Part shown: positions 32,200 through 62,960 of the stretch, one piece after another
How positions within the stretch are numbered: position 1 is the first letter of the stretch
How the letters are laid out: each line of letters opens with the position of its first letter
Assembly: GCA_949152475.1 (NCBI GenBank)
Contig: OX424564.1
Span: forward strand, 9,548,001 to 9,612,000
Reading direction: 5' to 3'
Length of the DNA stretch: 64,000 bases
From: Terebella lapidaria
Taxonomy: Eukaryota; Annelida; Polychaeta; Terebellida; Terebellidae
Translations under genes and position numbers: made by a program
The notes under the pieces: model-generated
What the model was told of the DNA's origin: nothing
The model's database searches: none
Seen by the model: the letters and a program-made list of their open reading frames with translations, nothing else

Positions 32200-35100
32200 T
32201 CCGTTCGGTTGTTTATCCGCATTGTACTCCAGATATAGAATAAATACCGATTGTTTCCCTAAGATATTTCAAGCCTCCCCAACTCATTTACGGAAATATT
32301 TACGGAAATATAGTCGATGAAAAGATATAATGAATCCGTTCCTCCTCCGCCCCACACCCCAACTCTTGAGTATTCGGCTCGTACATGTAATCAAAAGAAT
32401 TCAATTAATTTGCAGCCACACAAGCAAATTCAGTATTCACCCAATATCAGGTCTCACACTGTGCATTCTAACTTGGAGGGTTTGTCTGCCTCGCGACAAG
32501 ATTAAATCAGTACATAGGATCCGAGCAAGGTCAAGGTCACGCTGTAGCACTGGGCGTATTTCATTAGCCTTAACCAAATTGGTGGAGAATGTCCGGACCA
32601 AAACAAACAATGGACACCCACACCACGCCATTGAGGCAGTGATTTCCGGGGTCTTATCCCATTTTGATCAAAGGCCCCTTGAAGGAAGTGTTAAACACTT
32701 TTATTACATGATCAACACTGCCGAAACTTTTGACAGACAGTATAGGTATCATAATATTTACAACACTAATTGACATTTGTTTCGTGCTTTCGTATGTTTC
32801 GAACGAGCTGATATTTCCCATATGCATGCATTTCATGCAAAGTAATACACTTGTGCGCATAACATAATCAGAAATACATCGCTCGTGTATTTCTGCATGT
32901 ATGTAAATACTAGTTTTCAACCCAAAATGTATCAGGTATTCCAATGAAGGGCAGTTCCACTGTAGTATGCTCAGGAAGACCTCATGTCACGAATGTCTGG
33001 ATGTTCTGGAACTGAACGTAGCCATGGTGACTCCCCCGTGACAGGGCCAGTCTGACCGAGGGGCCGGGCTCTGGTTCTGATGTCAGCGGTAGCTCCTGCA
33101 GTATAATGATAAAAATGTTTTATTAAAAAAATATTAATATGCAGAATTATATATTAATATTTTGAAAACAGATATACGTGTTAAACGATCCACTATTTAG
33201 GTCCAGCAAATCATGGGATCCAAGATCCAGAACACGGAATACAACCTTAATAAATATTTTTCAATTGGTGATGGGCCAAGATGGACATTAAAACAATTCT
33301 AATGTTGGCCGTGTTGAAACATGCGAAGGTGGTTGATTATAGGTAATGTCCCAGTGGTGATCCAGAGCCGTTCTGATCCAGACACGACCCGCTGCCGATG
33401 TTACTGCCACACGACAGCAGCCCTACACTAGAGGCGCCACTGTAGCCACTGACATCACAGAAAGGGGTGTGACCTATAGAAATAATTGTAATTTCATTTC
33501 GTGTCAACAGATATAAAGCCAGTATTCTAATAGTAGATGGTAGATTCTATTCTATTTTGTATCTTATAAATTGAATGTCATCTCAGGTTTGTAGTTATTG
33601 CCGAGAACTACTTGTTCTGAAGACCAACTCAATAGGGATTAAAGGGACGTATTTGAATCGAACGGATTCATCATGAATTTGTTTTTCAGTTGGGTCGAAA
33701 TAATGTAGAGCAGCACATTTTGTTCAAATATCACTAAGACAAACTACATGCAAGAACTTACACCGGACCACGCCGTCAACAAGGGAGACACGCCGACACC
33801 GCCTAGCACAGTTGCGGTTGGGATCCACGTAAAACTTGGGTCTGCGGCGGTATCTGATGGCGATAACCGCCAGTAAAATAAACACAGATACTTGTGTGGT
33901 AATGATGCAAATGGAAAATATTGCCTTTAGCATCCAAACGATGGATCATCAATTGTCAGCGTGAAGTAGAACTATGATATATTTATTCTTCTGATAGTCT
34001 CTTATTAAACAATTGATATAATTGGTGACAATGGAAATAAAGCTGGACATGGAAGATGAACTGCAATCACATACGTTCACATCAATTTAATAAGGTAACA
34101 ATACATGTAGTTGAGTAATGAGAGTAGTATAATAAATTTCTTAGATATAAAATATATAGCTAATATAAGATATATACATTTCTTAGATATAGTTTATCAA
34201 ATGTTATTGATAATAGAAGGCATTGATATTACTAGTAGAATTCTCAATTACCTGGAATGTCACAACCCAGACTGTGTCTCAGATTATGACAGTGAATATT
34301 GCTGCATATGTCCGTGTATAGAACACATGCGTCTATACACAACACTGAACCATTAGGACACACACTGGATAACCCAGGCCAGTCTTGCATAGTGATATCT
34401 GCAACGAGCAATACGCCCCATAATGCTCCCATTTGTTAACGGACACGAAATATGTGCGACAGAAACAAGAGAATGTATGAAATAATAGCGGCAATATTTA
34501 TATCGGAGACAACAGAAGCAAAAAGTGGTCGGAAATGAAGGTGGCGTGATGGATGTAAAGAATAGGAAGGAACTCTACGTATATAATGTATGAATGGGTA
34601 ATCATTCACTTTGTTCAATCAACGAGTTATCTAAGCGTGGTAGCACAATGAAGCGTAATAGTCGAAATGGACTGGCGGAGGTAATGAGGGTGATTTATAT
34701 CTCACTTAGACATAAATGATACATACGATCCACTTATTGATCTGATTCTATAATTAGGAGTATTTCATATGCGGAGAAGTTACCAGGGTCATTCAAATTA
34801 TCATATACGACAGAATAGCAGATAGATGGAATCTGAGCAGGTAGGTCTACTACTGTACATGTACGTGCACATGTACATCAAATGGGATTTTGAAATAATA
34901 ACATAGCTTAGCAAAGTAGAAATGGACACCGACAAACAGACAAACTCATATTCCATCAGCAAGGTTGACCAGTAAGATGATGTCACTGTCCAACATTCAT
35001 ATTGGCTCCCCATCTACGCGAGGTAGTGTTTCGTTTTCAGCCTCGTAGTTGTATAATGATTGGTCCCAATGAAACAACACCATCATGGATCGTAACTGAC

Positions 35101-37700
35101 AAATCTAGAATGCATTTCGAAGGCACGTAACGGATAGGCTAAGTTCATATGTTCAACTACCTATATGGATACATGTTCATAACACAATTTCAAGTACTCT
35201 ACTTTTTTGCAAATATGTTGGGAACGCTAGATTCTAATAGAAACCTAGATACACAAATACAGTCAGAAACTATTGAGGCTCAAGTGATGGATATAGTGCA
35301 ATTTGGGACGACACTACTGGCGTTTGAGCTTGCAGTAAATGCCAGTATTAAAGTACTTCTTCCTGAAAATGTCATGTCCCACAATGAGAGCTGGATATGT
35401 TGGAATGTGCTGCTTTTATGGATGACCCAGATGTAGTCATGTACTTTGCCGTTTGACCAGTGAGATGATGTATACAACAAGTCACCGCCCGTGACGTAAC
35501 GAACATGCCCACCACAGTCTGCAACAGGCAAATGGAGAGAGCACCATTACTGTTAATGGAAGGTACTGACCTTACATTTACTAGATGGTACCTGCATCAT
35601 TTTTTTTATTGAGGCTTTCAACGAGGTAGCAAGCTAAATGCATCTGAGTAATCATTATTTATGCAGATTGTCAAGGTAAATAACAAGTTTAGTTTCATTC
35701 TGATTACAAGAACTCACCCGTTTCCATGTCATAGCTGATCATATTGGAATCCTTCATTTTTTCTGGTTTTTTTTTTGCCCGGAATACACGTATGTGGTTA
35801 AGAACACATGATTGTGGAACACAGGATTAGTATTCTTCAACTCACAACCTATCGTGATCTGTAAATAAAGGATTCACCGAAGTCCTTATAACTGTAGGCC
35901 CACTTACCGGGAATGAAGAAAAACTGTGCCCGAAATCCGGTATCACATGGCTGATCCATGATCAGAGAGGGTGATGACGTAATATCCTGCTCGAAGATGG
36001 ATGTGTGCAACACCGGGCGGAAGTAGTAACCATAGTGAATAGACAACAGGTGCCTGGTGCTCGTAGAACTAAACAGACAAAAGATGTGGTGCATGGCCAT
36101 TTAGGTCTAGTAATATTAAGTTTACGTTTCAGCATCTAGCTGAAAATGGTAAATTGCATGTGAGCCTCACCCGCTGGAGTTTATAAGATCAGGCCTATGA
36201 ACTTGCTAGTTTTACATTGTACCATGATGCACGTGTTCTGGCTAATGTCCCAGTCCAGGAAAGCGAGATGGTTCCATGGACATCTGTATTCTCGATCATG
36301 TAGACATATTTCTCCCCCTGTCTGGAATACCCGGAGGGGAAGAAGGGCGAGCTGATTGTGCCATTTGTCACGGGGCCCACAGCCGAGCCTCTATAGTGCT
36401 CCAGCTTCCCTGTACGGGGCGTTAAAAGCATGAAATTGTTCATGTCATTTCCAATAAAAGCAACGAGGAGTTATTTGGACAATTCATTGCCTCATCGTAG
36501 AACAAAGCCGAGGAAATCGGCCATCAAGTACATATGTGTCGAGATGAGTAAGAGAAAACAAAAGTAACATTATGTGTTAAATACGAGTTTCGCACTAGAG
36601 CATCAAGCTTTCCCCGTTTATGGATAAAAAACGTACTCATTACGACACTCAATTCGCACAGAGAGGTCAATTCTGGAGTGATGTGTGAATTCGATGTATT
36701 ATCCCGGTAGAAGCAAGCCTCGAGCCTACCTCGCGATGACACGGAGCTGTATGAGAACGAGCTCTGATTGGCTAATGCAAACGAGGTCCAGTTAATTTCC
36801 AAGTAAAATGGTGTGAATAATTCCAGGAAGCTGCAACTGAAATGAAAAAGTCATTTACTTTCCTTATATCACTGCCTTCTCATATTAGCAGAAACAAATG
36901 AATGCAATGAGCACGACCTATTGTTGTTTACGCCTTATTTTCTCAATTCGACGCAACAGCCTCATTTTACAACACAGGGAATATGAAAGCAATAACATGT
37001 GTTTACAGATGAAAAATACATGAATATTTTTTGACATTTAGAAGAATTATGTTTCACTTGTTTGTGCACAAATCTCCTTCTACTGCCGCCAGTTTGGCGC
37101 GTGACGGATGTCTTCTGATTGATGGATCACTCGGACACGCCCACTCCTCCTGTGCCATCCCAGTGATCGTCAGTTTACATTCGTCACAACCAATCAGTGT
37201 CAAGGAACAGCACACGTGGGATGGTGGGTCGGTGCTATTTGGGTCAGGTCGATCACGTGGTACAGTGGGGTTAGAGGTTAAGTACAGCGTGTGGCGAGAA
37301 TCTGACTGGATAATACCGTCCATCTTCTGGACTGGTACAGGAGACGTATTCAGTCTGCTGGCCTGTGTAAATACGTGAACCACGTTAATCTTACAAATGT
37401 ATATAAATATCAATATGTCCGTTTGACTGATTATCAATGGTGAAACAAATCTTTGCCAATGGAAATTGCTGCGTATTTTACCACAGTGTATCCCAGCGAC
37501 ACAATAGGCCGAAGGCATAAATAATTGCATTGTTTGACTACACATAGCTCAACGGGACTCCAATGCTGTCTTCTAGCATACGTTTTCTGGCCAGGAGTGA
37601 ACAATTTCGTTCATCTATTACAAATATTTTCAGGCACATCCATCAAACAAATTATGTGTTCTTATATGTGCATTATAGAGATTACATGAATGCATCATAG
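32200..37700 (-). repeat. Left arm of the large inverted duplication
   Basis: Matches 54090-62960 in reverse orientation along its length: 3' flank (32230-32780 with 62350-62960), then exons 14 to 2 and the intron sequence between them. The right arm carries extra insertions (61313-62206 and 54268-55192). The left arm lacks the segment equivalent to about 58470-59540. Confidence 0.9.
32982..37362 (-). pseudogene. Decayed inverted copy of the CUB/LDLa receptor gene
   Basis: Recognisable minus-strand exon equivalents of the gene at 53617-61243: exon 2 (37362-37050), exon 3 (about 36835-36650), exon 4 (about 36410-36225), exon 5 (about 36075-35910), exon 7 (35525-35362), part of exon 8 (about 35070-34960), exon 11 (about 34405-34259), TM exon 12 (about 33910-33762), exon 13 (about 33475-33345) and exon 14 (about 33100-32982). 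Exon 7 and the TM exon are still open. Exons 2, 3 and 4 each carry a small deletion that shifts the frame relative to the + copy, and exon 5 has lost 11 bases near its start and 18 bases later. Exon 13 ends early in TAA after GHYL. The two LDLa exons (9 and 10) are missing. A first exon on this strand could only come from 42203-42275 or 46361-46433, both of which lack a GT donor. Transcription cannot be excluded. Confidence 0.85.
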
Positions 37701-39858
37701 AAAAATTAGCCCAAGGGCTAAGAAAGGTTAGCGGACAATATATATTTTAAATCTTAGCCTTTTGTCTGGTGACCTTAATAACAAGGTCATTGGTCAATTC
37801 AAGGTCGTGAGAATATTCAGCATATATCATTTCCTATATGTTCGCAACTGATTCCAAAGCTGTAAAGTCGATAATAAGCGAGATATTAACCATTTTGTGC
37901 TCTGACCTTGAAAATGAGGTCGAAGGCCAAATTCAATGTCACGAGAATATTCTGCATATATCATTTTCTATATGTCCACAATTGATTCCTAGGCTGTAAA
38001 GTTGATAATAAAAGAGATATTACCCATTTTGCGCTCTGACCTTGAAAATGAGGCCAAAGGGCAAATTCAAAGTCACAAGAATATTATGGATATATCATTT
38101 CCTATATGTCCACGATTGATTCCTAAGCTGTAAAATCGATAATAAGCGAGATATTAGCCATTTTGTGCTATGACCTTGAAAATAAGGTCAAATGTCAAAT
38201 TTAAGGTCATCAGAATATTCAGCGTATATTCTTTCCTATATGTCCACAATTGATTCCTGAGCTGTAAAGTCGATAATAGGCGAGATAATAGCCATTTTGT
38301 CCCGTGACCTTGAAAATGAGGTCAAATGTCAAATTCAAGGTCACGTGAATATTCAGCATACATCATTCCCTACATGTCCACAATTGATCCCTAAGCTGTA
38401 AAATCGATAATAAGTGAGATATTAGCCATTTTGTCCCGTGACCTTGAAAATGAGGTCAAAGATCAAATTCAAGGTCATGACAATAATCTGCATATATCAT
38501 TTCCTATATGTTCATAATTGATTCCTAAGCTGTTAAGTCGATAAGAAGTGAGATATTAGCCATTTTGTCCTGTGACCTTGAAAATGAGGTCAAAGGTCAA
38601 ATTCAAGGTCATCAGAATATTCTGCATATATCATTTCCTATATGTCCACAATTGATTTCTAAGCTGTAAAGTAGATAATAAGCGAGATATTATCCATTCT
38701 GTTCTTTGACCTTGAAACTGAGGTCAGAGGTCAAATTCAAGGTCACGAGAATATTCAGCATATCGTTTCCTATATGTCCACAATTGATTCCTAGTCTCTA
38801 ATCTCAATATTAAGTGAGATATAAGGCATAATTTGTTCCATTATAAAGCATAGGAGAATTTACCATGGGAAAGTCCCATTTTGGCCAAGTTTGGCCCAAA
38901 ATGGCCCACTTCGAGCGATTCAAGCGCAACGAAACTTATACACATCACAGGAGTACATATGAGGAGTGTTGTGTATCAAAAAGAAAGAAAGTTACTGAAC
39001 AGTTTTTGAGAAAATGGCCGCCAAAGTCCAAAATCAGACATTTTTCGTCGAAAACGGCTGCCATTTTGAAAAAAATGCGAAAATCGAAAAACTAAAAAAA
39101 CCTTTCCTGGAAATATTTTCAGGTATTTTTGTGCAAAATTTCAGAAAGATTCGACCGTAAACTTTAAAGATAAAAATGTGAACCGACGACGGACGGACGA
39201 CGGACGGACGACAGACGACGGACAACGGACGCAACGCCACGGCAATAGGTTATCGGACCAAAGGTCCGGTAACCTAAAAAGTTACTGAACAGATTTTGAG
39301 AAAACGACCGTCAAATTCCAAAATTTTTTTTTTACTAAAATGGCCGCTCTGACCTTGAAACCGAGGTCAGAGGTCAAATTCAAGGTCACGAGAATATTCA
39401 GCATAATCATTTCCTATATGTCCACAAATGATTCCTAGTCTCTAATCTCAATATTAAGTGAGATATTAGGCTTAATGTGTCCCATTATAGGGCATAGGAG
39501 AATTTAACATGGTAAAGTCCCATTTGGGCCGAGTTTGGGCCCAAAATGTCCAACTTCGAGCGATTCAAGCGCAAAGAAATTTATACATGTCACAGGGGTA
39601 CATATGAGGCGTGTTATGCATCAATAAGAAAAAAAGTTACTGAACAGATTTTGAGAAAACGACCATCAAATTCCAAAATTGGCCATTTTTAGACGAAAAC
39701 GGCCGCTCTGACTTTGAAACCGAGGTCAGAGGTCAAATTCAAGGTCACGAGAATATTCAGCATATATCATTTCCTATATGTCCACAATTGATTCTTAGTC
39801 TCTAATTTCAATTTTAAGTGAGATATTAGGCTTAATGTGTCCCATTATAAAGCATATA

Positions 39859-41566
39859 CAGTAAACTCCCGTTATAACGAAGTCAATGGGACCCAGATGA
39901 TTACTTTGTTATAAAAAAAGTTTGTTATAAAAGAAGTTACAAGTGTAAATTTTTTTTCTTGTTCATTTTTCCAGGTGGTTTCTCTCGAAATTGGAACGAA
40001 AATAGTTCGTTTTTGTGGTACCAACTTTCTAGTAACCGACATTTATTTTGAGCGAATATTGAAACGTTTTTCTCTTAATCAATATTTATTTTTTGTCAAA
40101 TAAAAATACCAGTGAAACATAATGACATTCATCATATTCATAGCTCACAAGCACACAAATTCATCAATCACAAGCATACAAATTTGTCAATCAATATGTC
40201 CGGTAGCGTCCTGTTTCATAAACTGGGTCATGAGCATTTGCAGCTTGCCGGTGTGTTGCATTTTGCGCGCAAATTCTTCAAGTCCATTCAGGAACGGCAC
40301 ACAGTGGGATGATTCAGGTTTAGCCATGAGAATCGGACCAGAGATGGGCACGTTTTGGCTTCTGGCATTTTTAAACCACATCAGTAGTGCTGATTCAACG
40401 TCTGCATGTTTTGCTGTTCTCATGCGCTTTCTAGCGGGGCAGAAGCTGTCTTGAGATTTTGCGAGAGATTCTCTGTTTTTCAACCATGTTGATAAGGTGC
40501 TGATCGGCACTTCAAATTGTTTTGCAACTTCTGTGTTAGACTTTATTTTTTTGTCGACTTCAGCAATAGCTGCGAGTTTTGTTTCGATGGATACATGTTT
40601 CCGTTTGGTAGCCATGATGACGTTTGATAAATTTGTTCATAATTTGCTTTATTTATACTGTCCGCCCTCAAGAAAGTGATAAACCTCCTATTGTTACATA
40701 ATCTACTCAATATGACAAAATCTGCTCGATATCATGTGAAAGGAAGACTGTAACTACATCGTGGAACAACTGAGCCCAACTGATTGCAATCGACCAGTGA
40801 CGCATTCAGACAGCCAGCAACTAAATTCACAGCCCGCTATGCACCAATAGCCAATGTATGCGGCCACGATTTCTATCTGAGCCGCGATTGTCAATTGCCA
40901 GTGGAGCGTGAAATTGACCGGCTTCGATGACTTCGATTTAAAGTGATATTGGCAGTAAGTTATGGATTTTTCCATAACTTTCTGATTGAACGAAGAAAAC
41001 ATAACAGTTATATATCTGCACTTGTATACTCAAACAGATGTCTCTTTCTAATCGATTTCGTTGGGAGTTTCTGGTGGAGATATTTTGAGTTTGTTTACAT
41101 TGCCGCCATTCTCGGTGCTTTGTACCCCTTGATGCAGTGCGATTCCAGCCTACTTGTATATGTTCGAGCCATTCGAGCGTGAAATAGGTCAAGTCAGAGG
41201 TGACTCTGAGTGGCGCACAAAACAAAAGAAAAGCGGCTGCTAGTACTGTCATATGCTTGATTTATCCATCTGATCAAGCTTAGTTTGTTGTGTAACCTAT
41301 TTTTCTGAGACCACAGGCGTATATGTGATTGATTTAGAAAAAATGGTTTTCCTGCCAACATCACTTTAACCGCAGTAAATTCAATGATTTCACTGGGTTG
41401 GGACCAGCTAATATGTTTGATATAAGCGAAATTTCGATATATCCATTTCGTTATAACCGGCTTTGTTTATAATGTAATTGAATGGGGACTGGGCGGGACC
41501 AACATTATGCTTCGTTATAAGTGGGTACTTCGATATATCCGACTTTGAAATAACGAGAGTTTACTG
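39859..41566 (-). mobile_element. Pogo/Tigger-type DNA transposon, internally deleted
   Basis: 1708 bp. Terminal inverted repeats begin CAGTAAACTCCCGTTATAACG (left; first 20 bases quoted are the informative ones) and, reverse-complemented, CAGTAAACTCTCGTTAT (right). TA lies on both sides (39857-39858 and 41567-41568). It carries one truncated transposase frame on the minus strand (40187-40615). Non-autonomous: the DDE catalytic domain is absent. Inserted into an S1 tail module. Confidence 0.9.
40187..40615 (-). CDS. Tigger transposase fragment with CENP-B-type DNA-binding domain
   Basis: 142 aa. Residues 1-55 form the N-terminal CENP-B/psq helix-turn-helix (KRKHVSIETKLAAIAEVD, then EVAKQFEVPISTLSTWLKNR). 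Residues about 75-100 start the second helix-turn-helix (LLMWFKNARSQNVPISGPIL). The frame then jumps directly to a C-terminal tail (FLNGLEEFARKMQ), so the whole central DDE nuclease domain has been lost by an in-frame internal deletion. It could at most bind Tigger ends, as CENP-B-like proteins do; catalytic activity is impossible. Members of this family gave rise to host CENP-B-like proteins, but nothing here suggests domestication. Confidence 0.88.
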   Translation of the reverse strand: MATKRKHVSIETKLAAIAEVDKKIKSNTEVAKQFEVPISTLSTWLKNRESLAKSQDSFCPARKRMRTAKHADVESALLMWFKNARSQNVPISGPILMAKPESSHCVPFLNGLEEFARKMQHTGKLQMLMTQFMKQDATGHID

Positions 41567-42202
41567 TAGGAGAATTTAACATTGGAAAGTCCCATTTGGG
41601 CTGAGTTTGGGCCCATATTGGCCCACTTCGAGCGATTCAAGGGCAACGAAATTTATACATGTCACAGGGGTACATAGGAGGAGTGTCATGCATCAATAAG
41701 AAAAAAAGTTACTGAACAGATTTTGAGAAAACGACCGTCAAAGTCCAAAATTGGCCATTTTTCGACGAAAACGGCCGCCATTTTGAAAAAAAAATGCGAA
41801 AATAATAAAAACTAAAAAACTTTTTCCTGGAAATATTTTTAGGTATTTTTGTGCAAAATTTCAGAAATATTCGACTGTAAACTTTAATGATAAAAAGTGG
41901 ACGGACGGACGCCGGACGCCGGACGACGGACGCAACGCCACGGCAATAGGTTATCGGACCAAAGGTTCGGTAACCTAAAAACTGAATGCATGAATCACAG
42001 ATATAGAGTATGTATAATTCTGATTGATTCTCGCCCCACATCCAGGTGTTTTCCCACGGGGCTGAGCCAATAAATCCCCGGGGAATGCTCCTTGAACTCG
42101 ATACACTTCATTAAAAACTGATGGTTTATCGCTTGGTGTATTTATTAAAGAGATCCCACAGAATTGTTTTCAGTCTGAAATATTGAGACCAAGGAAACTT
42201 AG

Positions 42203-42275
42203 CGTTGATCGATTGTATGAAGAGCAGAAAAAAGAATTCTACCATTGCTTTTGACATTAGACTGTTGTTATCCAT
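42203..42275 (-). pseudogene. First-exon copy 1 (signal peptide), minus strand, unit A
   Basis: 73 nt from ATG at 42275, reading MDNNSLMSKAMVEF then a hydrophobic FFLLFIQSIN stretch. The base after the exon is C (CTAAG) where the intact copy has GTAAG, so the splice donor is lost. It is in the right orientation and about 4.8 kb upstream of the decayed left-arm gene. Confidence 0.75.
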
Positions 42276-44274
42276 GTTCAAGCATTATTCACACAGCACA
42301 GGTATTCTCAATGGTCTTTAGTTCCGTCGATATCCATTACATGCAGGCGTCCTTTCGTCTACCGGACCAGATTACAAAATGGCCCACGTGTAGAATTATA
42401 GATTTTGGATATTCCAGAATTATGTTGTAGGTCACCTTGTCCCAATTCTACATCATGCATGGAATGTATTAACATTATGGATCGCCTTTGTTCCAGCCTG
42501 TTTCTGTTTTTGAATTCAGGCACTGCAACCGTTGGCTGCAGGCCATCTGAGTGTGTAAAACAGATGTTATGTTAGGTCACCTTTTTGAAATCCTGTATGT
42601 TATGTTCCAAATTTATAGATCGTTTTTGTCCCAGCCTGTATTTAATTTCAGGCCCAATCATTGCTATTCCAACTGCATGGTGTTACATATGAGAATGTAA
42701 TCATGCGAACGTCAACCTCAAAAAGTAATGATTCTCATACTTCCAACTTATAACTATGCCATCTACTTTCCTCTCTCGATAATCATCTGCTTTCACTACG
42801 TAGCAGTGTTTTCCTGGCTTGGGATAAGCACAGGTATTAGGACACTACTATATCATTTCACTCCATTCGGTACCTCCCATTTCCTAATCCGAGAACGGTG
42901 ACATTATGGATGCTCCTAGTTTAATCGGTTAATCTCCCACGATGGTACCATCTATCCCGGGCCTGGGACGTGCAGAGCCCAGCATTAGACGTCTTCCACT
43001 GGAGACGCTGTCACTATGGAAGCACGAGACCGTCACCATGGATGCACGCGCTGACTGGCGGGTGTCCACGGCGGCATAAGCAGTGGAACGAACGTAACAG
43101 GGAGTCTCTGAGATGCAGAGCACTGTCCCCACTGAGGAGCTCGTATCGCCAGTCCCTTGTCTCAAGACTTTCATAATATACGTGCAGGTCGGACGAAGGA
43201 TGCAGGGAACCTTAGAAACCTGTCTCTAGTCCAGCTGCAGAACATAACTAACAATTTATCAGATGGAGGGTGTGTAGTGAGATAGGAATCATGAGTGGGA
43301 AAGGGGGATTTTGAAAAACTGGATGACTATATATAATACATGTTCTTAGTGGAATCGATACACGTAACTGGTGAACACGTTGATTTTATTCACAGATGCC
43401 TTGATATTTGCACAAAGAATATTTTTTTCTTAAATATGTTTGGTGTTCATTCTCATTTCCACGTGGGAATTAGGTTACTCTATAGAAACTTTACCAGAAC
43501 ATTATTCTGATATTGATATCAATCTCCCAAGCTTCAAGGTTAGCCAACGTATACATAGTTACTCACTATTTTATGTTAATGTTCTGTCAAGTATCAATAA
43601 TATTCATTTACTAAATGCGTGAGGCATGCGAATAAATACACTCATAAATACCAGTATCAATGATTTTATAAATTGGTTCACATTTCTCACGATAATACTT
43701 CATAAACACCTAAAAATATTGCACAAGTCATTCGCTGTCTTTGTGAGTATTCTTTTTGGTAAGTTCATATTATTGATAATATCCCATAAGAAAAGCAATT
43801 GCTGGTTAGTGATCCACACAATACAATTACCAGTGTTTTCCAATGTTCCAATTCTTCCAATGTTTCCTTTGAGATTATTCAATTAGTGTTTTTGTTTTTT
43901 GTCCTCAAGTAGCTTTGGTTTTAATTCAATATAAATGTGGAGCTATTGCTGCATCCAACTCCCAAATATAATTGCCATTGTCCTTGGTCTTGAATTTGTG
44001 ATTCAGGGGTAAGTAATGACATACACATAACCACTCACTGGTAACGTATCATGAGGCACTACATGCCTTTAATGTAGATGCCATGATACAAACCTAAGCC
44101 GCACCTTCAAACATTCGGTGTTCTAGTATCAATTCACAATGTTTGAGTTGACATACCCTGGAGTGTGCGTATTCAGTATTTAAGATACCAAACGATGCAT
44201 CATATAGGACTTCCTATACACTCGTAAAGGGAACCTCAGCAGCAATTCCTGTGCTGTGTGAATCCTGTTTGAGC

Positions 44275-44334
44275 ATGGATAACAACAGTCCAATGTCAAT
44301 AGCAATGTTCCTGACTTTCATACAGTCGACAAAC
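44275..44334 (+). pseudogene. First-exon copy 2 (signal peptide), plus strand, unit A
   Basis: MDNNSPMSIAMFLTFIQSTN followed directly by GTAAGT. The donor is good, but the exon is 60 nt and ends in phase 0, whereas exon 2 at 55227 needs phase 1. It would not splice in frame to that gene. Confidence 0.7.
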
Positions 44335-48539: not shown

Positions 48540-50007
48540 GTAAGCTTCCTTGGTCTCAATACTTCAGATTGGAAGCAACTCCATGTCACCTCCGTGATCA
48601 ATAATGAGTTGATAAACCATCAGTTATTAATGAAGTGTATCAAGTTCAAGGAAACATTCCCAAGAAACCCAGAGATTTGATAGCTAATCCCGTGGGAAAA
48701 CATGTGGTCATGAGATGGAAATCAAGTCAGGATGGTCTGTGCTGCTGTATACCTTTGATTAATGCATACGGATTAAACAGTAAATCTCAACATGACACAG
48801 TGTACATGGGTACCAGAAAAAACATCAGTACACGATGGCAAAAATTCCTTCACCCTGAACACACAACCATATATGAATGTGCAAAATGAGTAGTGTTTAC
48901 CCACACTATATGGTATTGTAGTTCAGGTATCATGTTCACTTCGTAATTAGAATATAAAAATCAGAGTTTGGAATTTTCTGATTCCATAAAGGCCCATGTG
49001 TGAAAAAAAAACCCAGAGCTGTAGGTCTATGACCCCCCCCCCCCAGCAAAATTGATTTGAACGTATGTGATATACATGTATTTTCGACATCATTTACAAA
49101 TTGCATGTTTATCTGCCATTCATCATAACAAACAGCAATTTGGTTGTGTATACGAGACACATACCACTCGAAATAACAAACCAATTGAGAGAAAAATTGG
49201 GTGCACCGAAAGACCAGACTCTTGGACTGATTGGTTTGTAAATAGCCAAACGTTGAGAATTACTTGTAGCTTGTACTCAATCATTCAAAACTGAAACTTG
49301 GTTTCTATTCTGGAAAGCCTGATGACTAATTCTTATCACCAATGACGCTTGGGAGATATTGAAGTTCCCAGCTAGTCTCTAAGCTGTTGCGACAAGGATA
49401 TGTTTTTATCAAGATTAATGATCGTGGACATCGTCACAATCTGGTTGAGGCGTACACTAAATCTGTGAGGAATGTGCAGCAGGACTTGTTTGCATATCAA
49501 TATTTTTGGGAATGCATGAGTTGCTACACGTGAGGCAGGGAATGTTCACTTTCAACGGACCACCTGATTTCACCTCCTCGTGCCATATCTTTAAGTTCAT
49601 AAAGTTCCATACCATTTTCTCGTTTTTCTCTGACATTGGACTTGAGTTTGGATAACGGACGCCATTTTGTGCGAACGGCATACTTTATATTCATGTATAC
49701 TGATCACTTTATTCGATTTTCCTTCTTTAGTTCACCGTGGTGAAATGTGCATATGATAAAATTAATCAATATGTGTCATGAGGATTATACGATTGTTATA
49801 AATATCCTGTTCAATGATGAGAGCCATCGATCTGTGAACGAAAGTGTGGACGAAAGTGCACAGGAGCTGAAATTTATAGTTAACTTCATAAATGTGTTAG
49901 TGTACTGCAAATGTTCATCTCACATTTTTGATTTCCTCGGTATCAACAAGGCATACCAATTACCACACTAGCCTGGCGGTTCATAACTTTCAGCACAATA
50001 GTGTAAG

Positions 50008-52354: not shown

Positions 52355-54190
52355 TATTCGTCATTACCTACCACGCCTTTCCTGACGAGTCCATTGTAAC
52401 TTCATGCTTTGGCAACTGCAATATATACTTGATACACAAAACACCGACTGAAATCAGATGTGAACAACGTGTAATAACCCAAAGGCTTTTGAACATCTAC
52501 ATTTATATCTTCGTACTGTACTAGTAATGCATCTTCACAATAAAACAACTAAATATATCTGAAGAAACTTTTTTTTCAAAACATCGATCAACTCTTTCAT
52601 CATCAGCACGTAAATGCCAGTGTGTTTACCAGTTACGTGCATCGATTCCACTAAGTACATGTATTATAAATAGTCATCCAATATTTCAAAATGTCCCTCT
52701 CCCAGTCATAATCCCTATCTCGCTACAGTCCCTCCATATGATAAATAGCTAGTTATGTTCTGTAGCTGGACCAGAGACAGGTATCTGAGATTCCCCGCAT
52801 CCCTCGTCCGATCTGCACGTCTATGATAAAAGTCTGGAGACAAAGAGACTGGCGACACGAGCTACTCAGTAGGGACAGTCAGTCGTGTTGCTCTACATCT
52901 CCCAGGCTCCCTGTCCGTTCCACTGCTCGTGCCGCCTTGGACACTAGCCAATCAGCGCGTGCCTCCGTGTCGACGGTCTCGTGCTTTCACAGTGACGGCG
53001 CTAGAATGCTCGGTCTCGAGTGGAAGACGTCTACTAGTATTGCTAGGCACAACACGTCCCAGGCCTGGGATAGATGGTATCATCGTGGGAGATTAACCGA
53101 TCCAACTAGGAGCATCTATAATGTCACCGTCCTCGGATTAGGAAATGGGAGGTAGCGAATGGAGTGAAATGATATAGTAGTGTCCTAATACCTGTGCTTA
53201 TCCCAAGCGGAAAAACAGCACCACGAAGTGAAAGCAGATGATTATTGGAGAGAAGAAAGTAGATGACATCTAGCTACAAGTTGGAAGTAGATTTAACGGA
53301 ATCATTACTTTCTGAAGTTAGCATTCGCATGATTATCCACTGAGTTGAAATGGCGTACAGTTGGAATACCAATGGTTGCAGTGCCTGAATTTAAATGCAG
53401 ACTGGGACAAAGACGATCTATAATGTTTGAACATAACATGTAGAACTGGGAGAGTGGCGACCTACAACATAATTCCGGAATATCCAAAATCTATAATGCT
53501 ACACGTGGGCCAATTTGTAATCTGGTCCGGTAGACGAAAGGACGCCTGCATGTAATGGATATCGACGGAACTAAAGAACATTGAGAATACATGTGCTGTG
53601 TGAATAATGCTTGAACATGGATAACAACAGTCTAATGTCAATAGCAATGCTAGAATTCTTCTTTTTGCTGTTCATACAATCGATCAATGGTAAGTTTCCT
53701 TGGTCTCAATATTCCAGACTGAAAGCATTTCTGTGGGATCTCTGTAATCAATACTCCAAGCGATAAACCATCAGTTATTAATGAAGTGTATCCAATTCAA
53801 GGAGCATTCCCCGGGAATTTAATGGCTCAGCCCCGTGGGAAAGCATCTGGATGTGAGAGGAAAATCAATCAGGATTATACATATATATATATTTATATCT
53901 GTGATTTATGCGTGCCTTTTTTGTGCAACTCACTCTAACGTACATAATAACACAAATACATGCAAGAAGACATGCAGTGATACATGCAGCTTTTACTCAG
54001 AGTAGACCGTAATTGTAATTCTAATCAGTTCACTAATCAGTATTTTTGTAGTAAATCGATCGGTTCACTTCAAAAGTACGAATCGGAATTTGGAGTTCCT
54101 CTAAGCTATACGTGGTCAAACAATGCAAATTGAAAACATGCCTTATTGTGTTGATGGAATACACAGTGGTAAAAAAACAGCAATTTTGAT
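52355..54190 (+). repeat. Inverted partial copy of the unit A/B first-exon region
   Basis: Reverse-complement match to 41985-43400 plus 37453-37530 (promoter-side block at 52740-53160, first exon at 53617, downstream intron sequence to 54190). The distal part 52355-52830 also matches 63490-63985 in reverse. It supplies the first exon and presumably the promoter of the + receptor gene. Confidence 0.85.
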
Positions 54191-57100
54191 TGGCAAAATC
54201 TTGTTTCACCATTGATAATCAATCCAAAGGGCATATACTAGTATATACCAAACAAGAAAATGCAGCAAACTGCGGAAGACGACATTAGAGCTCGAGCACA
54301 TCATCAGCACCACGACAGCTGAATATATCTTACACAACGTTAGGCCTACCCCCCCCCCCCCCCCAAAAAAAAAGAAAGAAGAAGCCATAATTTCATCCCC
54401 TATGTGATTCCAATTCATTTCCGTATACTAGGATGAAAAACATGGCCTACTTCATTCATATTACTAATAAGTAAACATTTATTTTAAAATCGATCAATGG
54501 AACAGATATGCCTGCTAAAATGATATGGAACCTCATTAAAATATCCTCAAAACATTGAAAACTATGAGGAATATCTGCATCTGATAACATCAGATATAGC
54601 CTAACACATGCCTTTACTGGGCAAATTAAAATACCAGTTAAGAATAAAAAGACTTCGCAATCCAGCACAGAACACCAGCTTAATTGTCATATTATAAAAT
54701 ACGTCAAATTACGGTAAATGTAGCCGTGGCATCGCAGACAAATCGCTGTGTTTACTTCATAACGCCAAAAAAGTCCACACGCAGATGCCCACAATAAACA
54801 CATGCATGTATGCATACACGAATTGCTGAACAGAAATTGTGTTTCAAAATACGCGTCATTGTGGTAAAATTTGCTTTGCATTCTGGGAACGTCAATTTCC
54901 ATCGGCTCCGCCATTTTGGGACGTTTCTAGATAATTTGAACATTTACGTTATTTTCTCAAACCTAGCACATCTATTCATGCCTCATGTATCTGTGGAATA
55001 GTCAAAGTTTCCCATCAATTCGAGAGATTTTATGTCAAGGACAAAGAAAATCCTCATTTGAAGTAGGTATCTAAACGTTTACATGTCAAAACGTGCGTCG
55101 ATAGGTTGGCATGAAACCTCCATGAAAAAGTCAGCACATAGACATGCAGAGGGTTGGGGGCTTCGCCCCCAACGCTCTAATGTCAAAAACTTTGGTGAAA
55201 TTAATGCGGTTCATATTTTTACACAGGCCAGATGACTGAATACGTCTCCTGTACTAGTCCAGAAGAAGCCCGGTATTATCCAGTCATAGATTCTCGCCAC
55301 ACCCTGTACTTGACCTCTGATCCTGCTGTACCACGTGATCAGCCTGACCTGAATACCACCGACTCACCATCCCACGTGTCCTGTTCCTTGACACTGATTG
55401 GCTGTGACGAATGTAAACTGAGTCTGACAATCACTGGCATGGCACAGGTTGAGTGGGCGTGTCCAAATGATCCACCAATCAGAGTACACCCATCACGTGC
55501 CAAGCTGGCGGCAGTTGAAGGAGATTTGTGCACAAACAAGTGAATATTCTTCTAAATGATAAATATGTCGAATATATTCACGCATTTTTCTTATTATCTT
55601 CATATTCATATGTTGCAAAATGAAGCAAATTTATATCAAATTGAGGCAATAAAGCGTTCACGATAATAGGTCGTGCTCACCGGATGCATTGGTTCTGTTA
55701 ATATGAAAAGGCAGTGATACAAGGAAGGTAATTGTAATTTAATTTTCAGTTGCAGCTTATTGGAATTATTCGAACCATCTTACTCGGAAGTTAGCTGGGC
55801 CTCGTTTGCATTATCCAATCAGAGCTCATTCTCATTCAGCTCCGTGTCATCAAGAGTCAGACTCGAGGCTTGTTTTTACTGGAATAATACATCGAATTCA
55901 CACATCTACTCCAGAATTGACCTCTCTGTGCAAAGTGAGTGTCGTATTGAGTATGTTTTTTTATCCATAAATGGGGAAAGCTTGATGCTTCAGTGCAGAA
56001 CTCTTATTCATACACATATAATGTCACTTTTGTTTTCTCTTATTCATCTTGACACATATGTACTTGATGGCCGATTTCCTCGGCTTCCTCGGCTTTGTTC
56101 TACGATGTAGCAAGGAATTGTTAAGGGGAAAATAACTCCTCGTTGCTTTTATTGGAAATGACATGAAAAATTTTATGCTTTTAACGCCCCGTACAGGGAA
56201 GCTGGAGCACTATAGAGGCTCGGCTGTGGGCCCCGTGACAAATGGCACAATCAGCTCGCCCTTCTTCCCCTCCGGGTATTCCAGACAGGGGGAGAAATAT
56301 GTCTACATGATCGAGAATACAGATGTCCATGGAACCATCTCGCTCAATTTCCTGGACTGGGACATTAGTCAGAACACACGCATCATGGTACAGTGTAATA
56401 ATAGCAACTTCATAGGCCTAATATGTCTGCCTCTGATTAGGCCAGTGTGTCTTTGAATAAACTATTCAGTGGGCTTTGTTTCTATTCCAAAATGTTTTAC
56501 TTTGTTATTGTCATCATTAATACTTAGTTGTATCGGTGGATATAGGTTGATAGGTCCTCTGTCTGTCCGTGAGGACACCAGTGTGTCTTTGGATATACTA
56601 TTTGGTGGATTTTGTTTCTATTCTGAAATGTTGTATTTTACGTTTGCTATTATCATCATTAAAATCTGCTTGTATCGGAGGTAATGGGTTGATACTTATA
56701 TTTGTAACACTTAATGAGCTGGTGTCACTGCTGGTGGACGTTAAATCTGTCCCCGGGGATATCATAAATTCAGTAGCCTTTTTCTAAATTATTTTCATAG
56801 GTTCTTGGGTAGTTCTATACTAATTTCACAGGTGTACAGTAGAAACAACTACATTTCACACACTGTCTGTCCTTGATGGAGCCAGTGTGTCTTTGGATAA
56901 ACTAATTGGTCGGGATTTGTTTCTATTCCAAAATATTGTATTATACGTTCGATATTGTCATTAAAACCTAGATCAAAATCTGTATTACAACAGATTAAAA
57001 TCTAGTTGTAATGATACTTACATTACTTATAAAAACTAGCCGGTGAGGCTCACAAATATTTAATTATTTCCAGTTATGCTGAAACGTAAGAATAATATTT

Positions 57101-60100
57101 CATGTCGCATGCACACTCGTGTTTGCAAGTTTATTGGGTTTTAAATGTATACACAATTATACTAGACATGGATGTCCATGTATCACGTCTTTTGTCTGTT
57201 TAGTTCTACGAGTTGAGGAATGAAACCAGGCACCTGTTGTCTATTCACTATGGTTACTACTTCCGCCCGGTGTTGCACACATCCACGCCGCAATTACTTG
57301 TGATCTTCGAGCCGGATATTACGTCATCACCCTCTCTGATCATGGATCAGTCGCGTGACACCGGATTTAGGGCACAGTTCTTCTTTATCTCTGGTATGTT
57401 GGCCTACAGTTATAAGGACTTCAGTGAATCATTTATTTACAGATCACAATAGATTATGAGTTGAAGAATACCAATCCTGTTTTCCACAATTATATGTTCT
57501 TAACCACATACACGTATCCCATGAAAAAAAACCCAGATGAAATCAAGGATTCTGATACGATCAGCTATGACATGGAAACGGGTGAGTTCTTCTAATCAGG
57601 ACGAAATGTTATTTACCTTGACAATCTGCATGATTGTGCCATAATTACGAAGATGCATTTAAACTGCTACCTGATTGAAAAAATACTGCCTCAATAAAAA
57701 AAAAAATGATGCAGGTACCAACTAATAAATGTAAGGTCAGTAGCTTCCATTAACAGTAATGGTGTTCTCTCCATGTGCCTCTTGCAGACTGTGGTGGGCA
57801 TGTTCGTTACGTCACGGGCGGTGACTTGTTGTATACATCATCTCACTGGTCAAATGGCAAAGTACATGACTGCATCTGGGTCATCCATAAAAGCAGCACA
57901 TTCCAACATATCCAGCTCACGTTGTGGAACATGACATTTGCAGGGAGAGGTACATTAATACTGACATTTACTGCATGCTCAAATCAATACCTCCCGAAGT
58001 ACGCTCTCTCCATCGCGTAGTCGTAATGGAACTAATTGTGCATGTTTTATTGTAGCTAGGTTTCTATCAGAATATAGCGTCACCTTCTCATGCCAAAAAA
58101 TAGAGTACTTACAATTGTGTTTGATACACGAACATATTATGACTTATTATTGTGAATATGTTCCCATGTTTGTAGCTGAACAGAAGAGAATAGCCTATCC
58201 ATTACGTTGCTTAAAAATCTATTCCAGATTTGTCAGTTACGATCCATGATGGTGTTACGTCGTTGGGACCAATCATACACAACTACCGGGCAGGAAACGA
58301 AAGTCTGCCTCACGTAGATGGGGAGCCAATACGAATGTTGGACAGTGACAGAGGGTTCTACGTCAGGCTCCGGGGAACTGTGTATCACAGTGATACATTC
58401 TTCCTGACTTTTGTATCTTATAATGACCCTGTCGACGAACATATCAACGGTACGTGATAGATAGTATACGGAACTGAAACGGCATTTGATATTTAGCAAA
58501 CGATTCAATTCAAGGTCCTCTCAGAATGTCATGGAAAATATTCTACGGGTAAATGTTGCTGCGGCCTATATAATGTGGCAAGCATGACAATGGCATTATA
58601 ATCAACATTGAATGGGATCAATGAAAATGATGCTCTGTGTACACAAAAGGATTGCCTCTATTATATATGCTGGGTTAAATTATACATACCGGTATTGAAC
58701 TATGCATGGGAAAGCGAAAACCGAATTGGATCCAATCTGGGAATCAGATATTTCATTACACAAGGGGTTGTTACAACCAACTATTAACACAGGGCCCTAC
58801 AATCCAATGAACACTCGGGGCCTCCTGTTTGCTGAATATTAACGAGTGATAACACATTTTTTTCACAATCTAAGTCGATACTAAGTCCCGTATTTGAAAT
58901 GTAATTATACATTTGTAAATCCAATATTTGGTCTATGGATAACAGACTATATTATCGTATATCTTGCAGGTAGTGCAAATGCACAATGCTGGGGCGTGAA
59001 GGAGTTTTACTGCCCTGGATCTCCAGGCCTCTGTATTGACATCAACTTCCTGTGTGACGGTCACGTACACTGCCCGGGGGCCGAGGACGAAGCGTCCATC
59101 TGTAGCTGTCAGTATGTTGAGTCAGAGATTGTCTCATTTGCAAAAGTTTCGACATGAAAAGCGTGCTGAAGAGATATCAAAATCCAGTTGCAAGGTTTCA
59201 AATTCCATATCGACGAAATGTTAAGATGCTGGTATTTCTGTACCACTTATGGCGTTGGTGACTTTTATGTTATTCCTTTTTTGAGACAGACGCTCACGTG
59301 ATGCCAGACCACCGAGTGCAGACGACACACGAGTCTCACAACTGTTCCCAGGCCGAGTTCATGTGTCTCCATGGCAACAAGTGTGTACCACGTGATGTCG
59401 TGTGCGACTACTGGCCTGATTGCCCGGATGAAAGTGATGAGTTCAACTGTGGTATGATTGAAGTCGGTTGTACATGATGAAGTAATTTGCGCATTGACGA
59501 CATAACAAAATGTTTTGTATTTTATTATTTCAAAATCCAATCCCAGTAGGCCTAGTACCTGCTCAGATTCCATACACTTACTATTGTGTCGTATGTGATA
59601 ATTTCAATGACACGGGTTTTTTTCCTACGGATAAAATACTCTCAATAATAGAGTCAGATTCATGAATGGACCGTATGTATCATTTATGTCTTAATGATAC
59701 ATAGATCACCGTCGTTTCATCAGCCAGTCCATTTCGACCATTATGCTTCATTGTGCTACCACGTTTAGATTATTCGTTGATTGAACAAAGTGAATGATCA
59801 CCCATTCCCATATACCTAGAAAGTTTCTTCATATTCTTTACATCCATCACTTTACCTTCATTTCCGACCACTTTTTGCTTCTGTTGTCTCCGTTATAAAT
59901 ATTGCCGCTATTATTTCATACATTCTCTTGTTTCAGTCACACATTTTCCTGTTAGTTAACAAATGGGAGCATGATATGGGGCGTATTGCTCGTTGCAGAT
60001 ATCACTATGCAAGACTGGCCTGGGTTATCCAGTGTGTGTCCTAATGGTTCAGTGTTGTGTATAGACGCATGTGTTCTATACACGGATATATGCAGCAATA

Positions 60101-61243
60101 TTCACTGTCATAATCTGAGACACAGTCTGGGTTGTGACATTCCAGGTAATTGAGAATTCTACTAGTAATATCAAAGACTTTTATTATCAATATCATTTGG
60201 AAACTATATATTTTATATCTAAGAAATTTATTACACTACTCTCATTTCTCAACTACATGTATTGTTACCTTAAATTAACGTCTGTGATTGCAGTTCATCT
60301 TCCATGTCCAGGTTTATTTCCATGTAATTTCATATTGCAGCAATGCCACATAAGATATCGGATGATATCCGCTGGTCGCTGATCATTCCGCTGTGTTTCT
60401 CCATCTTCTGCGTATTTATTTTACTGGGGGTTATCGCCATCAGACACCGCCGCAGACCTAAGTTTTACGTGGATCCCAACCGCAACTGTGCTTGGCGGTG
60501 TCGGCATGTGCCCTTGGTTGACCGCGTGGTCCGGTGTAAGTGTTTGCCATGAAATTTGAAACAAATATGCCTAGGCGATATATGCTGCTCCATAATACTA
60601 GGCACCACTTAAAGTGTTTTGTTTCCTTTCGTCTTGTTCCTGATTTAATGATCCTTCAGAAGAAATATAGTATTCAGCATAACAAACTTTGGCATGATAT
60701 ACCTGTAATAAACCGTTTGCTCTATATCTGTATTTCAATAGGTCATGCCCCTTTCTGTGATGTCAGCAGCTACAGTGGCGCCTCTGGCGTTGGGCTGCTG
60801 TCGTGTAGCAGTAACATCGGCAGTGGGTCTTGTCTGGATCAAAACGGGTCTGGATCACCACTGGGACACTATCTACAGTCACCCACCTTCGTACGTCCCC
60901 AAATCTTTGTAATACTGTAATTGATGTACATGAGGTCTATCAACATGCTGTCAATTGAAACAATTGTTTGCAGAATTAACTTATATGCCTAAATCTTGTA
61001 CGTTTTATTAGTGGTCCTGGATGTTTCATTGTGGCTCGCATAAAACCTTCAATTAGCACTGTAAAACGTACTACGATTGTGATAATCTATATAAAGATGT
61101 CCTTGTTTATACACCCACACCCCACACAGGAGTTGCCTCTGACATCAGCACCAGAGCCCAGCCCCTCAGTCAGGCCGTCCCTGTCACGGGCCAGTCACCA
61201 TGGCTACGTACAGTTCCAGAACATTCAGACATCCCTCACATAA
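53617..61243 (+). CDS. Single-pass membrane receptor with CUB-like and LDL-receptor class A domains
   Basis: Fourteen exons with consistent phases: 53617-53689, 55227-55539, 55750-55934, 56197-56387, 57204-57393, 57453-57581, 57788-57949, 58228-58449, 58970-59107, 59290-59451, 59999-60145, 60341-60535, 60742-60890 and 61130-61243, about 789 aa. Signal peptide 1-24. CUB-like regions at about 25-190, 191-360 and 361-488 (the last opens DCGGHVRYVTGG). LDLa modules at about 494-534 (LCIDINFLCDGHVHCPGAED) and 550-588 (FMCLHGNKCVPRD, then CPDESDE). A Cys-rich LDLa-like segment spans 589-637. TM helix about 649-671, then an RHRRRPK stop-transfer and a Ser/Gly-rich tail ending QNIQTSLT. The plan resembles the CUB plus LDLa endocytic receptors (LRP3/10/12 or NETO type); ligand unknown. 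Exons 6-12 are all symmetrical phase 1-1. The exon 6 acceptor and exon 9 donor were chosen by frame and are the least certain junctions. Confidence 0.88.
54268..55192 (+). repeat. Interspersed repeat, copy 2 (same family as 955-1868)
   Basis: Opposite orientation to copy 1. Its hairpin (55153-55173) lies about 50 bp before the exon 2 acceptor of the receptor gene. The left arm has the uninterrupted site (about 37385-37425 on the - strand), giving approximate ends. After the hairpin comes GCTCTAAT; both copies continue with TGTCAAAAA. Confidence 0.75.
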
Positions 61244-62206: not shown

Positions 62207-62960
62207 TTAAAAACTAGCAGGTACATGGATGTTTGGCACAGGTGTACTCATTTGCATGACATTTCTATGATATGTTAAGTATTTGTTCGTCCAAAACATA
62301 CGGAAGTGCATATCGAATGTCAATTAGTGCTGTAAATATCATGATACCTATACTGCCTGCCAAAAGGTTTGGCAGTGTTGATCATGTAATAAAAGTGTTT
62401 AACACATTCTCATAAGGGACTTCTAATCAAACGGGGATCAGATCCCAGCAATCACTTCCTCAATGGCGTGGTGTTGGTACCCACTGTTTGTTCTGGTCCG
62501 GACATTCTCCACCAATTTGTTTAAGGCTAATAAAATACGCCCTGTGCTACAGCATGACCTTGACCTTGCTCGGATCCTGTGTACTGATTTAATCTTGTCG
62601 CGAGGCAGACAAACCCTCCAAGTTCGAATGCATAGTGTGATACCTGATATTGGGTAAATACTGTATTCACTGGTGCAGCTGCAGATTAAACGAACTCTCG
62701 TTTACATGTGTGCGAGTGGAATACCCAAGGGATCTGTGGTGTAGGGACGGAAAAGGATTGGATTCAGTATTCTTATCGACTATATTTCCGTAAATGGGTT
62801 GGAGAGGCTTGGAGTACATTGGGAAACAATCGATCTTTATTCTGTAGTAAAATGTGGATAAACAAATCGAATATATATTATATTTGAACCAAAACTGGTC
62901 CTCCTTGATTACTGCAGAAGTTGAATGTGTGCGACCAGACACCACAGGACATTCTTACAC

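What the first reader, a model, noticed from the sequence alone, without database searches (positions are those of the whole stretch)
32200..62960. Giant imperfect palindrome holding one intact and one dead copy of a CUB/LDLa receptor gene
The two arms carry the same 3' flank, exons and introns in mirror order. The right copy has 14 exons in consistent phase; the left has several frame-shifting deletions and lacks two exons. The centre is a further array of first-exon units. This looks like a receptor family expanding by inverted and tandem duplication, a pattern common in invertebrate recognition receptors.
Basis: partly seen in the sequence, partly recalled or inferred. Interest (0 to 1): 0.75.

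Follow-up and report, generated by a model that had tools for sequence, protein, structure and literature searches.

The report
Inverted receptor gene pair, one dead
An animal genome, probably a segmented worm's, carries two mirror-image copies of a cell-surface receptor gene, one intact and one broken, that seem to have copied short stretches of sequence from each other; each part of this is a known kind of event, so it is a good example rather than a surprise.

Summary
Two arms (about 32.1-43.4 kb, minus; 52.6-63.0 kb, plus) carry one receptor gene in mirror order. The right copy is intact: 13 exons in consistent phase, 746 aa, with CUB and LDLa domains, one transmembrane helix and a tail. 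A predicted Paralvinella (annelid) protein matches 96% of it at 39% identity. The left copy is dead: five frame-shifting indels, two in-frame stops, damaged splice sites, both LDLa exons gone. Four more first exons lie between the arms; none is usable. Arms are 87% identical and dS is about 0.31 outside tract-like regions, so two joined alleles are very unlikely. New here: identity is a mosaic. Runs of up to 190 matching bases cross exon-intron borders and silent sites (0 of 10,000 shuffles reach this), pointing to gene conversion between the arms. dN/dS of 0.28 suggests both copies were constrained for most of their history and the left died late. 'Expanding recognition-receptor family' is not supported by the window: one usable copy, purifying selection, a conserved tail. 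The host genome could not be searched, so total copy number is open.

The parts
53617..61243 (+). intact receptor gene (R), 13 exons: 53617-53689, 55227-55539, 55750-55934, 56197-56387, 57204-57393, 57788-57949, 58228-58449, 58970-59107, 59290-59451, 59999-60145, 60341-60535, 60742-60890, 61130-61243 (stop included)
   Evidence: 2241-base CDS, no internal stop, phases agree; aligns to P0001 (Paralvinella palmiformis) to the last residues
56197..57393 (+). exons 4-5 of R, holding the only segment that passes Pfam's CUB cut-off (residues 205-294)
   Evidence: PF00431 24.2 bits, cut-off 21.4
58970..59451 (+). exons 8-9 of R, two LDLa domains; absent from the left copy
   Evidence: PF00057 50.4 bits, 2 stretches; no left counterpart
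60341..60535 (+). exon 11 of R: transmembrane segment and start of the tail
   Evidence: sequence; the matching residues 534-559 of P0001 hold the only confident helix in its otherwise poor model
32982..42275 (-). dead receptor copy (L): first exon A 42275-42203; remnants, read off the arm alignment, of exon 2 at about 37362-37058, exon 3 36836-36653, exon 4 36409-36223, exon 5 36068-35908, exon 6 35518-35357, exon 7 (truncated) 35104-34982, exon 10 34398-34252, exon 11 (partial) 33885-33762, exon 12 33473-33325, exon 13 33095-32982
32113..32856 (-). 3' flank of L, matching 62236-62960 downstream of R
   Evidence: 79% over 753 columns
62236..62960 (+). 3' flank of R
41977..45887 (.). tandem unit 1: first exon A (minus), upstream region, first exon C (plus)
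   Evidence: 86% to 46141-50007; 91% over 3766 aligned bases
46141..50007 (.). tandem unit 2: first exon B (minus), upstream region, first exon D (plus)
37452..37706 (-). intron-1 piece of L, repeated at 45892-46146 at the end of tandem unit 1
   Evidence: 92% over 255 bases
56130..56368 (+). putative conversion tract, paired with L 36476-36242; end of intron 3 plus most of exon 4, with a run of 190 aligned bases without mismatch (broken only by the 4-base deletion in L)
57191..57347 (+). putative conversion tract, mostly exon 5, paired with L 36081-35954
   Evidence: 98.4% over 128 aligned bases
57678..57916 (+). putative conversion tract, end of intron 5 plus most of exon 6, paired with L 35618-35390
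   Evidence: 96.5% over 229 aligned bases
59856..60174 (+). putative conversion tract, end of intron 9, exon 10 and start of intron 10, paired with L 34540-34223
   Evidence: 97.8% over 317 aligned bases
54244..55189 (+). insertion in intron 1 of R only; another copy at 960-1886 on the other strand
   Evidence: 81% over 967 columns; in the left arm the flanking matches end at 37400 and resume at 37413
37707..41976 (.). 4.27-kb insertion in intron 1 of L holding GGTCA-type minisatellites and a CENP-B-like fragment; the junction of the tandem units near 46141-46146 shows the site without it

Best explanation
A single gene for a CUB/LDLa transmembrane receptor, probably annelid, was duplicated in head-to-head inverted orientation. 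Both copies worked and stayed under purifying selection for most of their history, while short tracts were exchanged by gene conversion between the arms. The 5' region of the left copy was later duplicated in tandem. Repeated elements entered intron 1 of each arm separately. The left copy then died by small deletions, splice-site loss and loss of the LDLa exons, so only the right copy can make the receptor. Shown: the arms, the right gene model, the lesions, the identity mosaic. Supported by pairwise identities: inversion before tandem duplication. Inferred: gene conversion as cause of the mosaic, late death of the left copy, and the protein's action as a surface receptor or co-receptor.
For: Mirror order of exons, introns and 3' flank. 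Intact 746-aa frame and a near full-length homologue (E 1.3e-158, 39% identity over 96% of the query; tail and splice joints agree). Lesions of L. Order of events: R-A 86.4%, R-B 85.4%, A-B 93.1%, with 129 of 206 sites where exactly two of the three agree pairing A with B. Conversion: runs of 190, 130 and 87 matches; 0 of 10,000 shuffles stratified by codon position and non-coding sites reach any of the three; two-state over one-state model 2dlnL 127; dS 0.017 in 182 codons of the five longest-looking tracts taken from the 12 listed, against 0.309 in 366 codons outside them; tracts cross exon-intron borders. Late death: dN/dS 0.28 (CI 0.20-0.40) outside those tracts; the 4-, 11- and 18-base deletions of L lie inside these tracts, so they are probably younger than the exchanges; of 62 amino-acid differences (two of them the L stops) 20 keep the Paralvinella residue in R, 9 in L, 30 in neither, 3 face a gap.
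Against: The tracts were chosen by identity, so its contrast is partly circular; the shuffle test does not have that flaw, but it assumes independent sites and one rate per class. The 20 against 9 split is not significant alone (two-sided p 0.06). No DNA outgroup was available, so the direction of conversion is unknown. Tract exons show no rise in GC (0.48 against 0.51 outside; introns 0.35 in both), so no GC-biased footprint. CUB support is thin: one segment passes Pfam narrowly, exons 2 and 3 scanned singly give nothing and the Paralvinella protein shows only LDLa, comparisons among the CUB-like segments fail, and every PDB match falls in or beside the LDLa region (34 sequences, 39).
Confidence: 0.8

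Rival explanations
1. Assembly artefact: two haplotypes of one locus joined head to head.
For: No read evidence was on hand; such joins happen in heterozygous invertebrate assemblies (recalled).
Against: dS 0.31 outside tracts; arm identity 86.7% over 4331 aligned bases; a tandem unit inside the centre and insertions specific to each arm; no N in the window.
Confidence: 0.05
2. No gene conversion: the near-identical tracts are exons and splice regions under unusually strong constraint, or regions of low mutation rate.
For: Exons are on average closer than non-coding parts (91.6% against 83.7%).
Against: Silent sites in the long tracts are nearly unchanged while exons 2, 12 and 13 carry many silent changes (dS 0.29, 0.38, 0.45); tracts run into introns; the left copy is dead; codon-class shuffles never reach the observed runs (0 of 10,000).
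Confidence: 0.12
3. Recognition-receptor diversification: this is one node of a large, fast-evolving family made by inverted and tandem duplication.
For: Repeated 5' duplications (A-D) and an inverted copy at one locus; such domains occur in recognition proteins (recalled).
Against: Only one usable copy in the window; spare first exons are unusable; dN/dS 0.28; conserved tail; a single homologue was returned among the 7992 candidates scored in each of two searches, which is weak evidence because that search reaches only relatives sharing short exact words.
Confidence: 0.1
4. The extra first exons are alternative start exons feeding the intact right copy.
For: C and D lie on the plus strand upstream of R and keep a GT donor.
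Against: C and D have 60 and 63 coding bases before the donor, so they end in phase 0 where exon 2 needs phase 1; read onto exon 2 the third codon is a stop (from the sequences). A and B are on the other strand and have CT in place of the GT donor.
Confidence: 0.03

Closest known systems
GSTT2 inverted duplication in great apes (PMC3375281; passages read)
   Same: Tandem inverted duplicate gene pair, gene conversion between the copies, duplicates described as dying in humans.
   Different: GSTT2 duplicates are 99.4% identical in humans and silencing is regulatory with a deletion polymorphism; here the arms are 87% identical with only short converted tracts, and one copy carries coding lesions.
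Caenorhabditis inverted-repeat gene pairs such as F44E5.4/F44E5.5 (PMC1803023; passages read)
   Same: Divergent paralogous pairs in an invertebrate that stay locally alike; gene conversion proposed; some copies alike only over part of their length.
   Different: The C. elegans F44E5 genes are 100% identical, with intergenic arms at 95.7% and a 126-base spacer, and no dead copy is mentioned in the passages I saw; here the spacer is about 9 kb and one copy is dead.
Mammalian sex-chromosome palindromes (PMC3723533, PMC8981503; abstracts in search listing)
   Same: Large inverted repeats with arm-to-arm conversion.
   Different: Those arms exceed 99% identity by frequent conversion; this one is 87% identical overall.
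CULD and NETO, CUB/LDLa transmembrane proteins (PMC4732287; passages read)
   Same: CUB and LDLa domains with one transmembrane segment.
   Different: CULD has one CUB and one LDLa; NETO-type proteins two CUB and one LDLa (from a reference title in that paper). Here one CUB passes Pfam, with two CUB-like stretches, and two LDLa plus one degenerate; no similarity beyond LDLa was found by the sequence searches made.

Membership tests
CUB/LDLa single-pass membrane receptors (broad class) | at least one CUB and one LDLa domain | tested here: met
   PF00431 24.2 bits (cut-off 21.4), PF00057 50.4 bits (cut-off 24.1) with 2 LDLa stretches. Against: the Paralvinella relative shows LDLa only
CUB/LDLa single-pass membrane receptors (broad class) | signal peptide and one transmembrane helix after the LDLa domains | tested here: inconclusive
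   hydrophobic N-terminus in exon 1 and hydrophobic segment in exon 11, read by eye from the sequence; confident helix at the matching place in P0001. No dedicated predictor was run
NETO family | exactly two CUB and one LDLa | tested here: not met
   one CUB, two LDLa above cut-off
NETO family | sequence similarity to a NETO over more than the LDLa | tested here: inconclusive
   PDB matches lie in or beside the LDLa region; an 'NMDA receptor auxiliary protein' chain matches only residues 451-497 at E 0.057. NETO sequences were not compared directly
Palindrome homogenised by frequent arm-to-arm conversion | arm identity above 99% | tested here: not met
   86.7% over 4331 aligned bases
Inverted duplicate with local gene conversion | tracts of identity longer than chance, crossing silent and intronic sites | tested here: met
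   runs 190, 130, 87; 0 of 10,000 stratified shuffles
Inverted duplicate with local gene conversion | trees of tracts group paralogues within a species | not testable with these tools
   no second species with both arms on hand
Joined haplotypes (artefact) | arm divergence at allelic level | tested here: not met
   dS 0.31 outside tracts
Expanded recognition-receptor family | many intact paralogues in the genome | not tested
   The genome search did not answer at any of 8 tries; one intact copy in the window
Expanded recognition-receptor family | positive or relaxed selection on the ectodomain | tested here: not met
   pairwise dN/dS 0.28 outside tracts; in none of the 10 exons compared (of 13) does dN exceed dS; exon 10, wholly in a tract, has dS 0.034 and dN 0. 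A pairwise average cannot exclude a few selected sites

The most novel reading that the evidence does not exclude
The dead mirror copy still takes part: it acts as a template from which the live receptor gene is patched or varied by conversion, so that a pseudogene shapes the surface receptor's ectodomain in populations.
Probability: 0.05. Interest if true: 0.6.

Novelty: new member of a known kind. Interest (0 to 1): 0.3.

Why it matters
It is a clear case, readable from one window, of the life course of an inverted duplicate: long double function, patchy conversion, then late death. It also supplies an exon-level model of an uncharacterised receptor whose conserved tail suggests a signalling or sorting role in annelids. 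If population data showed the dead arm feeding the live gene, it would become a test case for pseudogene-driven receptor variation.

Tried and rejected
A 14th exon near 59547 was dropped: the right arm lacks a good donor in the needed phase (sequence) and the Paralvinella protein has nothing between the neighbouring exons. A first joining of exons with other donors for exons 8 and 11 broke the frame and was replaced. Widening the homologue search by a two-sequence profile gave the same single protein. A search on residues 560-746 (365 candidates) gave none; since it missed even the known homologue it shows nothing about absence. Profile comparison of the CUB-like segments among themselves gave no support (about 1.3 to 1.7 effective sequences each, so weak). 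AlphaFold on P0001 alone was poor (mean pLDDT 33) and no fold search was made on it. Exon-wise alignment to P0001 misplaced many of the short exons and was not used; alignment A6 was made but not used. Rfam gave no match at its gathering scores. Papers: six searches (8 to 12 rows seen of 54, 20, 23, 192, 68 and 341 papers) showed none describing this gene or locus among the rows seen. Rows dropped before counts: and 60 codons with a gap in L, and exons or parts with no trusted counterpart (exons 1, 8, 9, the end of 7, the start of 11); one search also dropped codons split by introns; and 27 used seven homologous segments and ungapped columns only.

Full report
What is there. The window has 39% GC and no N. 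A self-comparison finds two arms in mirror order, from 32113 to about 43.4 kb on the minus strand and from about 52.6 kb to 62960 on the plus strand. A direct alignment of the arms shows homology through exons, introns and the 3' flank, broken by insertions and deletions special to each arm. Over 4331 aligned bases in seven homologous segments identity is 86.7%: exons 91.6%, the rest 83.7%.

The intact copy. On the right arm, 13 exons with GT-AG borders join in consistent phase into 2241 bases (stop included) with no internal stop, giving 746 residues. Pfam finds one CUB (residues 205-294, 24.2 bits, cut-off 21.4) and two LDLa stretches (50.4 bits). By eye there are two more CUB-like segments, made by exons 2-3 and 6-7, and a degenerate six-cysteine LDLa-like segment in exon 10. 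These did not reach Pfam (exons 2 and 3 singly), comparisons among the CUB-like segments gave no support, and PDB matches lie in or beside the LDLa region (34 sequences, 39). The first exon and exon 11 hold hydrophobic stretches that I read as signal peptide and membrane helix.

Its relative. A search of a 5.8-billion-protein collection, in which 7992 candidates were scored, returned one relative: an unnamed predicted protein of the vent annelid Paralvinella palmiformis, at E 1.3e-158, 39% identity over 96% of the query (taxonomy). The alignment agrees with the splice joints, including exon 8-9 and exon 9-10, and with the cytoplasmic tail to its last residues. The relative lacks much of exons 4-5, perhaps by misprediction, and Pfam finds only LDLa in it. 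I take the organism to be an annelid on this one match; that is an inference. A search restricted to residues 560-746 returned nothing, but it missed the known relative too, so it is no evidence of absence.

The dead copy. Against the right copy, the left has deletions of 2, 6, 1, 4, 11 and 18 bases and a 1-base insertion in exons 2, 3, 4, 5 and 7, five of them frame-shifting. Read in the right copy's frame it has stops in exons 7 and 12 (a third stop listed there, in exon 13, is the natural end). The donor sites of exons 1, 3 and 12 have changed. The end of exon 7, all of exons 8 and 9, and the start of exon 11 with its acceptor have no counterpart. It cannot make the receptor.

The centre. 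Two tandem units, 41977-45887 and 46141-50007 (86%; 91% over aligned bases), each hold a first exon on the minus strand (A, B) and one on the plus strand (C, D). In the first-exon segment A and B are 91.5 and 89.9% identical to R, C and D 74.1 and 75.7%, so C and D are older. A and B have CT where the donor GT should be. C and D keep GT but end in phase 0, while exon 2 needs phase 1; joined to exon 2 they would meet a stop at the third codon. So none is a usable alternative start. Over the longer 5' module A and B are closer to each other (93.1%) than to R (86.4 and 85.4%), with 129 sites for A+B against 44 and 33, so the inversion probably came before the tandem duplication.

Insertions. A piece at 54244-55189, also present at 960-1886, sits only in intron 1 of the right copy. 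A 4.27-kb piece at 37707-41976, with 134-base minisatellites carrying GGTCA motifs and a CENP-B-like fragment, sits only in the left; the junction of the tandem units shows the site without it.

Mosaic identity. The longest runs of aligned bases without mismatch are 190 (broken only by the 4-base deletion in L), 130 and 87. When mismatches are shuffled within codon positions and non-coding sites separately, none of 10,000 shuffles reaches these values (largest 151). A two-state model beats one state by 2dlnL 127, with identities of 0.96 and 0.81, and lists 12 tracts of 40 or more aligned bases, such as 56130-56368, 57191-57347, 57678-57916 and 59856-60174. Several cross exon-intron borders. 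In 182 codons inside five of these tracts dS is 0.017; in 366 codons outside them it is 0.309 (CI 0.23-0.40; the choice of tracts by identity makes this contrast partly circular). Constraint on the protein does not hold silent and intronic sites, so gene conversion between the arms is the best reading. Its direction is unknown, and GC is not raised in the tracts.

Timing. Outside those tracts dN/dS is 0.28 (CI 0.20-0.40). If the left copy had been neutral since duplication the value should be about 0.5 or more (inference). The 4-, 11- and 18-base deletions of the left lie inside tracts that are otherwise nearly identical, so they are probably younger than those exchanges. Of 62 amino-acid differences, two of them the L stops, R keeps the Paralvinella residue in 20, L in 9, neither in 30, with 3 at gaps; the lean towards change in L is not significant (p 0.06). 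Together this suggests a long shared life and a late death.

Artefact. Divergence of this size, the nested tandem unit and arm-specific insertions argue against two alleles joined by the assembler; long reads are needed for proof.

How it likely works. The right gene makes a single-pass surface protein whose CUB and LDLa domains bind a partner and whose conserved tail acts inside the cell. By comparison, the CUB/LDLa proteins CULD and NETO act on other membrane receptors and channels, in trafficking or channel function (PMC4732287, passages). A co-receptor or sorting role is thus plausible for this protein but is not tested.

Known or new. Inverted duplicates with conversion are known, for example GSTT2 (PMC3375281, passages), Caenorhabditis gene pairs (PMC1803023, passages) and mammalian sex-chromosome palindromes (abstracts in a listing). 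The gene itself did not appear in the rows seen of six paper searches. The locus is a new member of a known kind.

Limits. A structure prediction of the relative without an alignment was uninformative apart from the membrane helix.

Noticed in passing
7818-9698 (+): A 626-codon stop-to-stop frame with 12 TQT motifs, like the C-terminal part of the ATMIN/ASCIZ protein that binds dynein light chain (name and motif recalled; Pfam gave nothing above cut-off).
   Followed up: partly
12242-14537, 37751-39856 and 41567-41981: Related arrays of a 134-base unit with GGTCA motifs, embedded in longer repeated pieces; perhaps a mobile element carrying minisatellites.
   Followed up: no
21845-23029: Tandem array of a 147-base unit, about 8 copies, with a 197-codon open stretch at 22106-22699 inside it.
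   Followed up: no
23847-24215: A short copy of the same 134-base repeat on the opposite strand.
   Followed up: no
29946-30323 (-): Exon-like frame resembling enoyl-CoA hydratase/isomerase (PF00378, E 1.3e-5, 25.1 bits against a cut-off of 27), next to the left arm.
   Followed up: partly
40187-40636 (-): Fragment with a CENP-B N-terminal DNA-binding domain (PF04218, 30.2 bits), perhaps a pogo/Tigger-like transposase remnant (recalled), inside the left-arm insertion.
   Followed up: partly
63453-63989 (-): A diverged (70%) copy of the region upstream of first exon R (52343-52870), just outside the right arm; either another family 5' end or a repeat.
   Followed up: partly
2736-5629: Cluster of direct and inverted repeats, including a perfect 204-base tandem duplication at 3443-3855.
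   Followed up: no
56423-57026 (+): About 600 bases in intron 4 of the right copy, with internal repeats, absent from the left copy.
   Followed up: no
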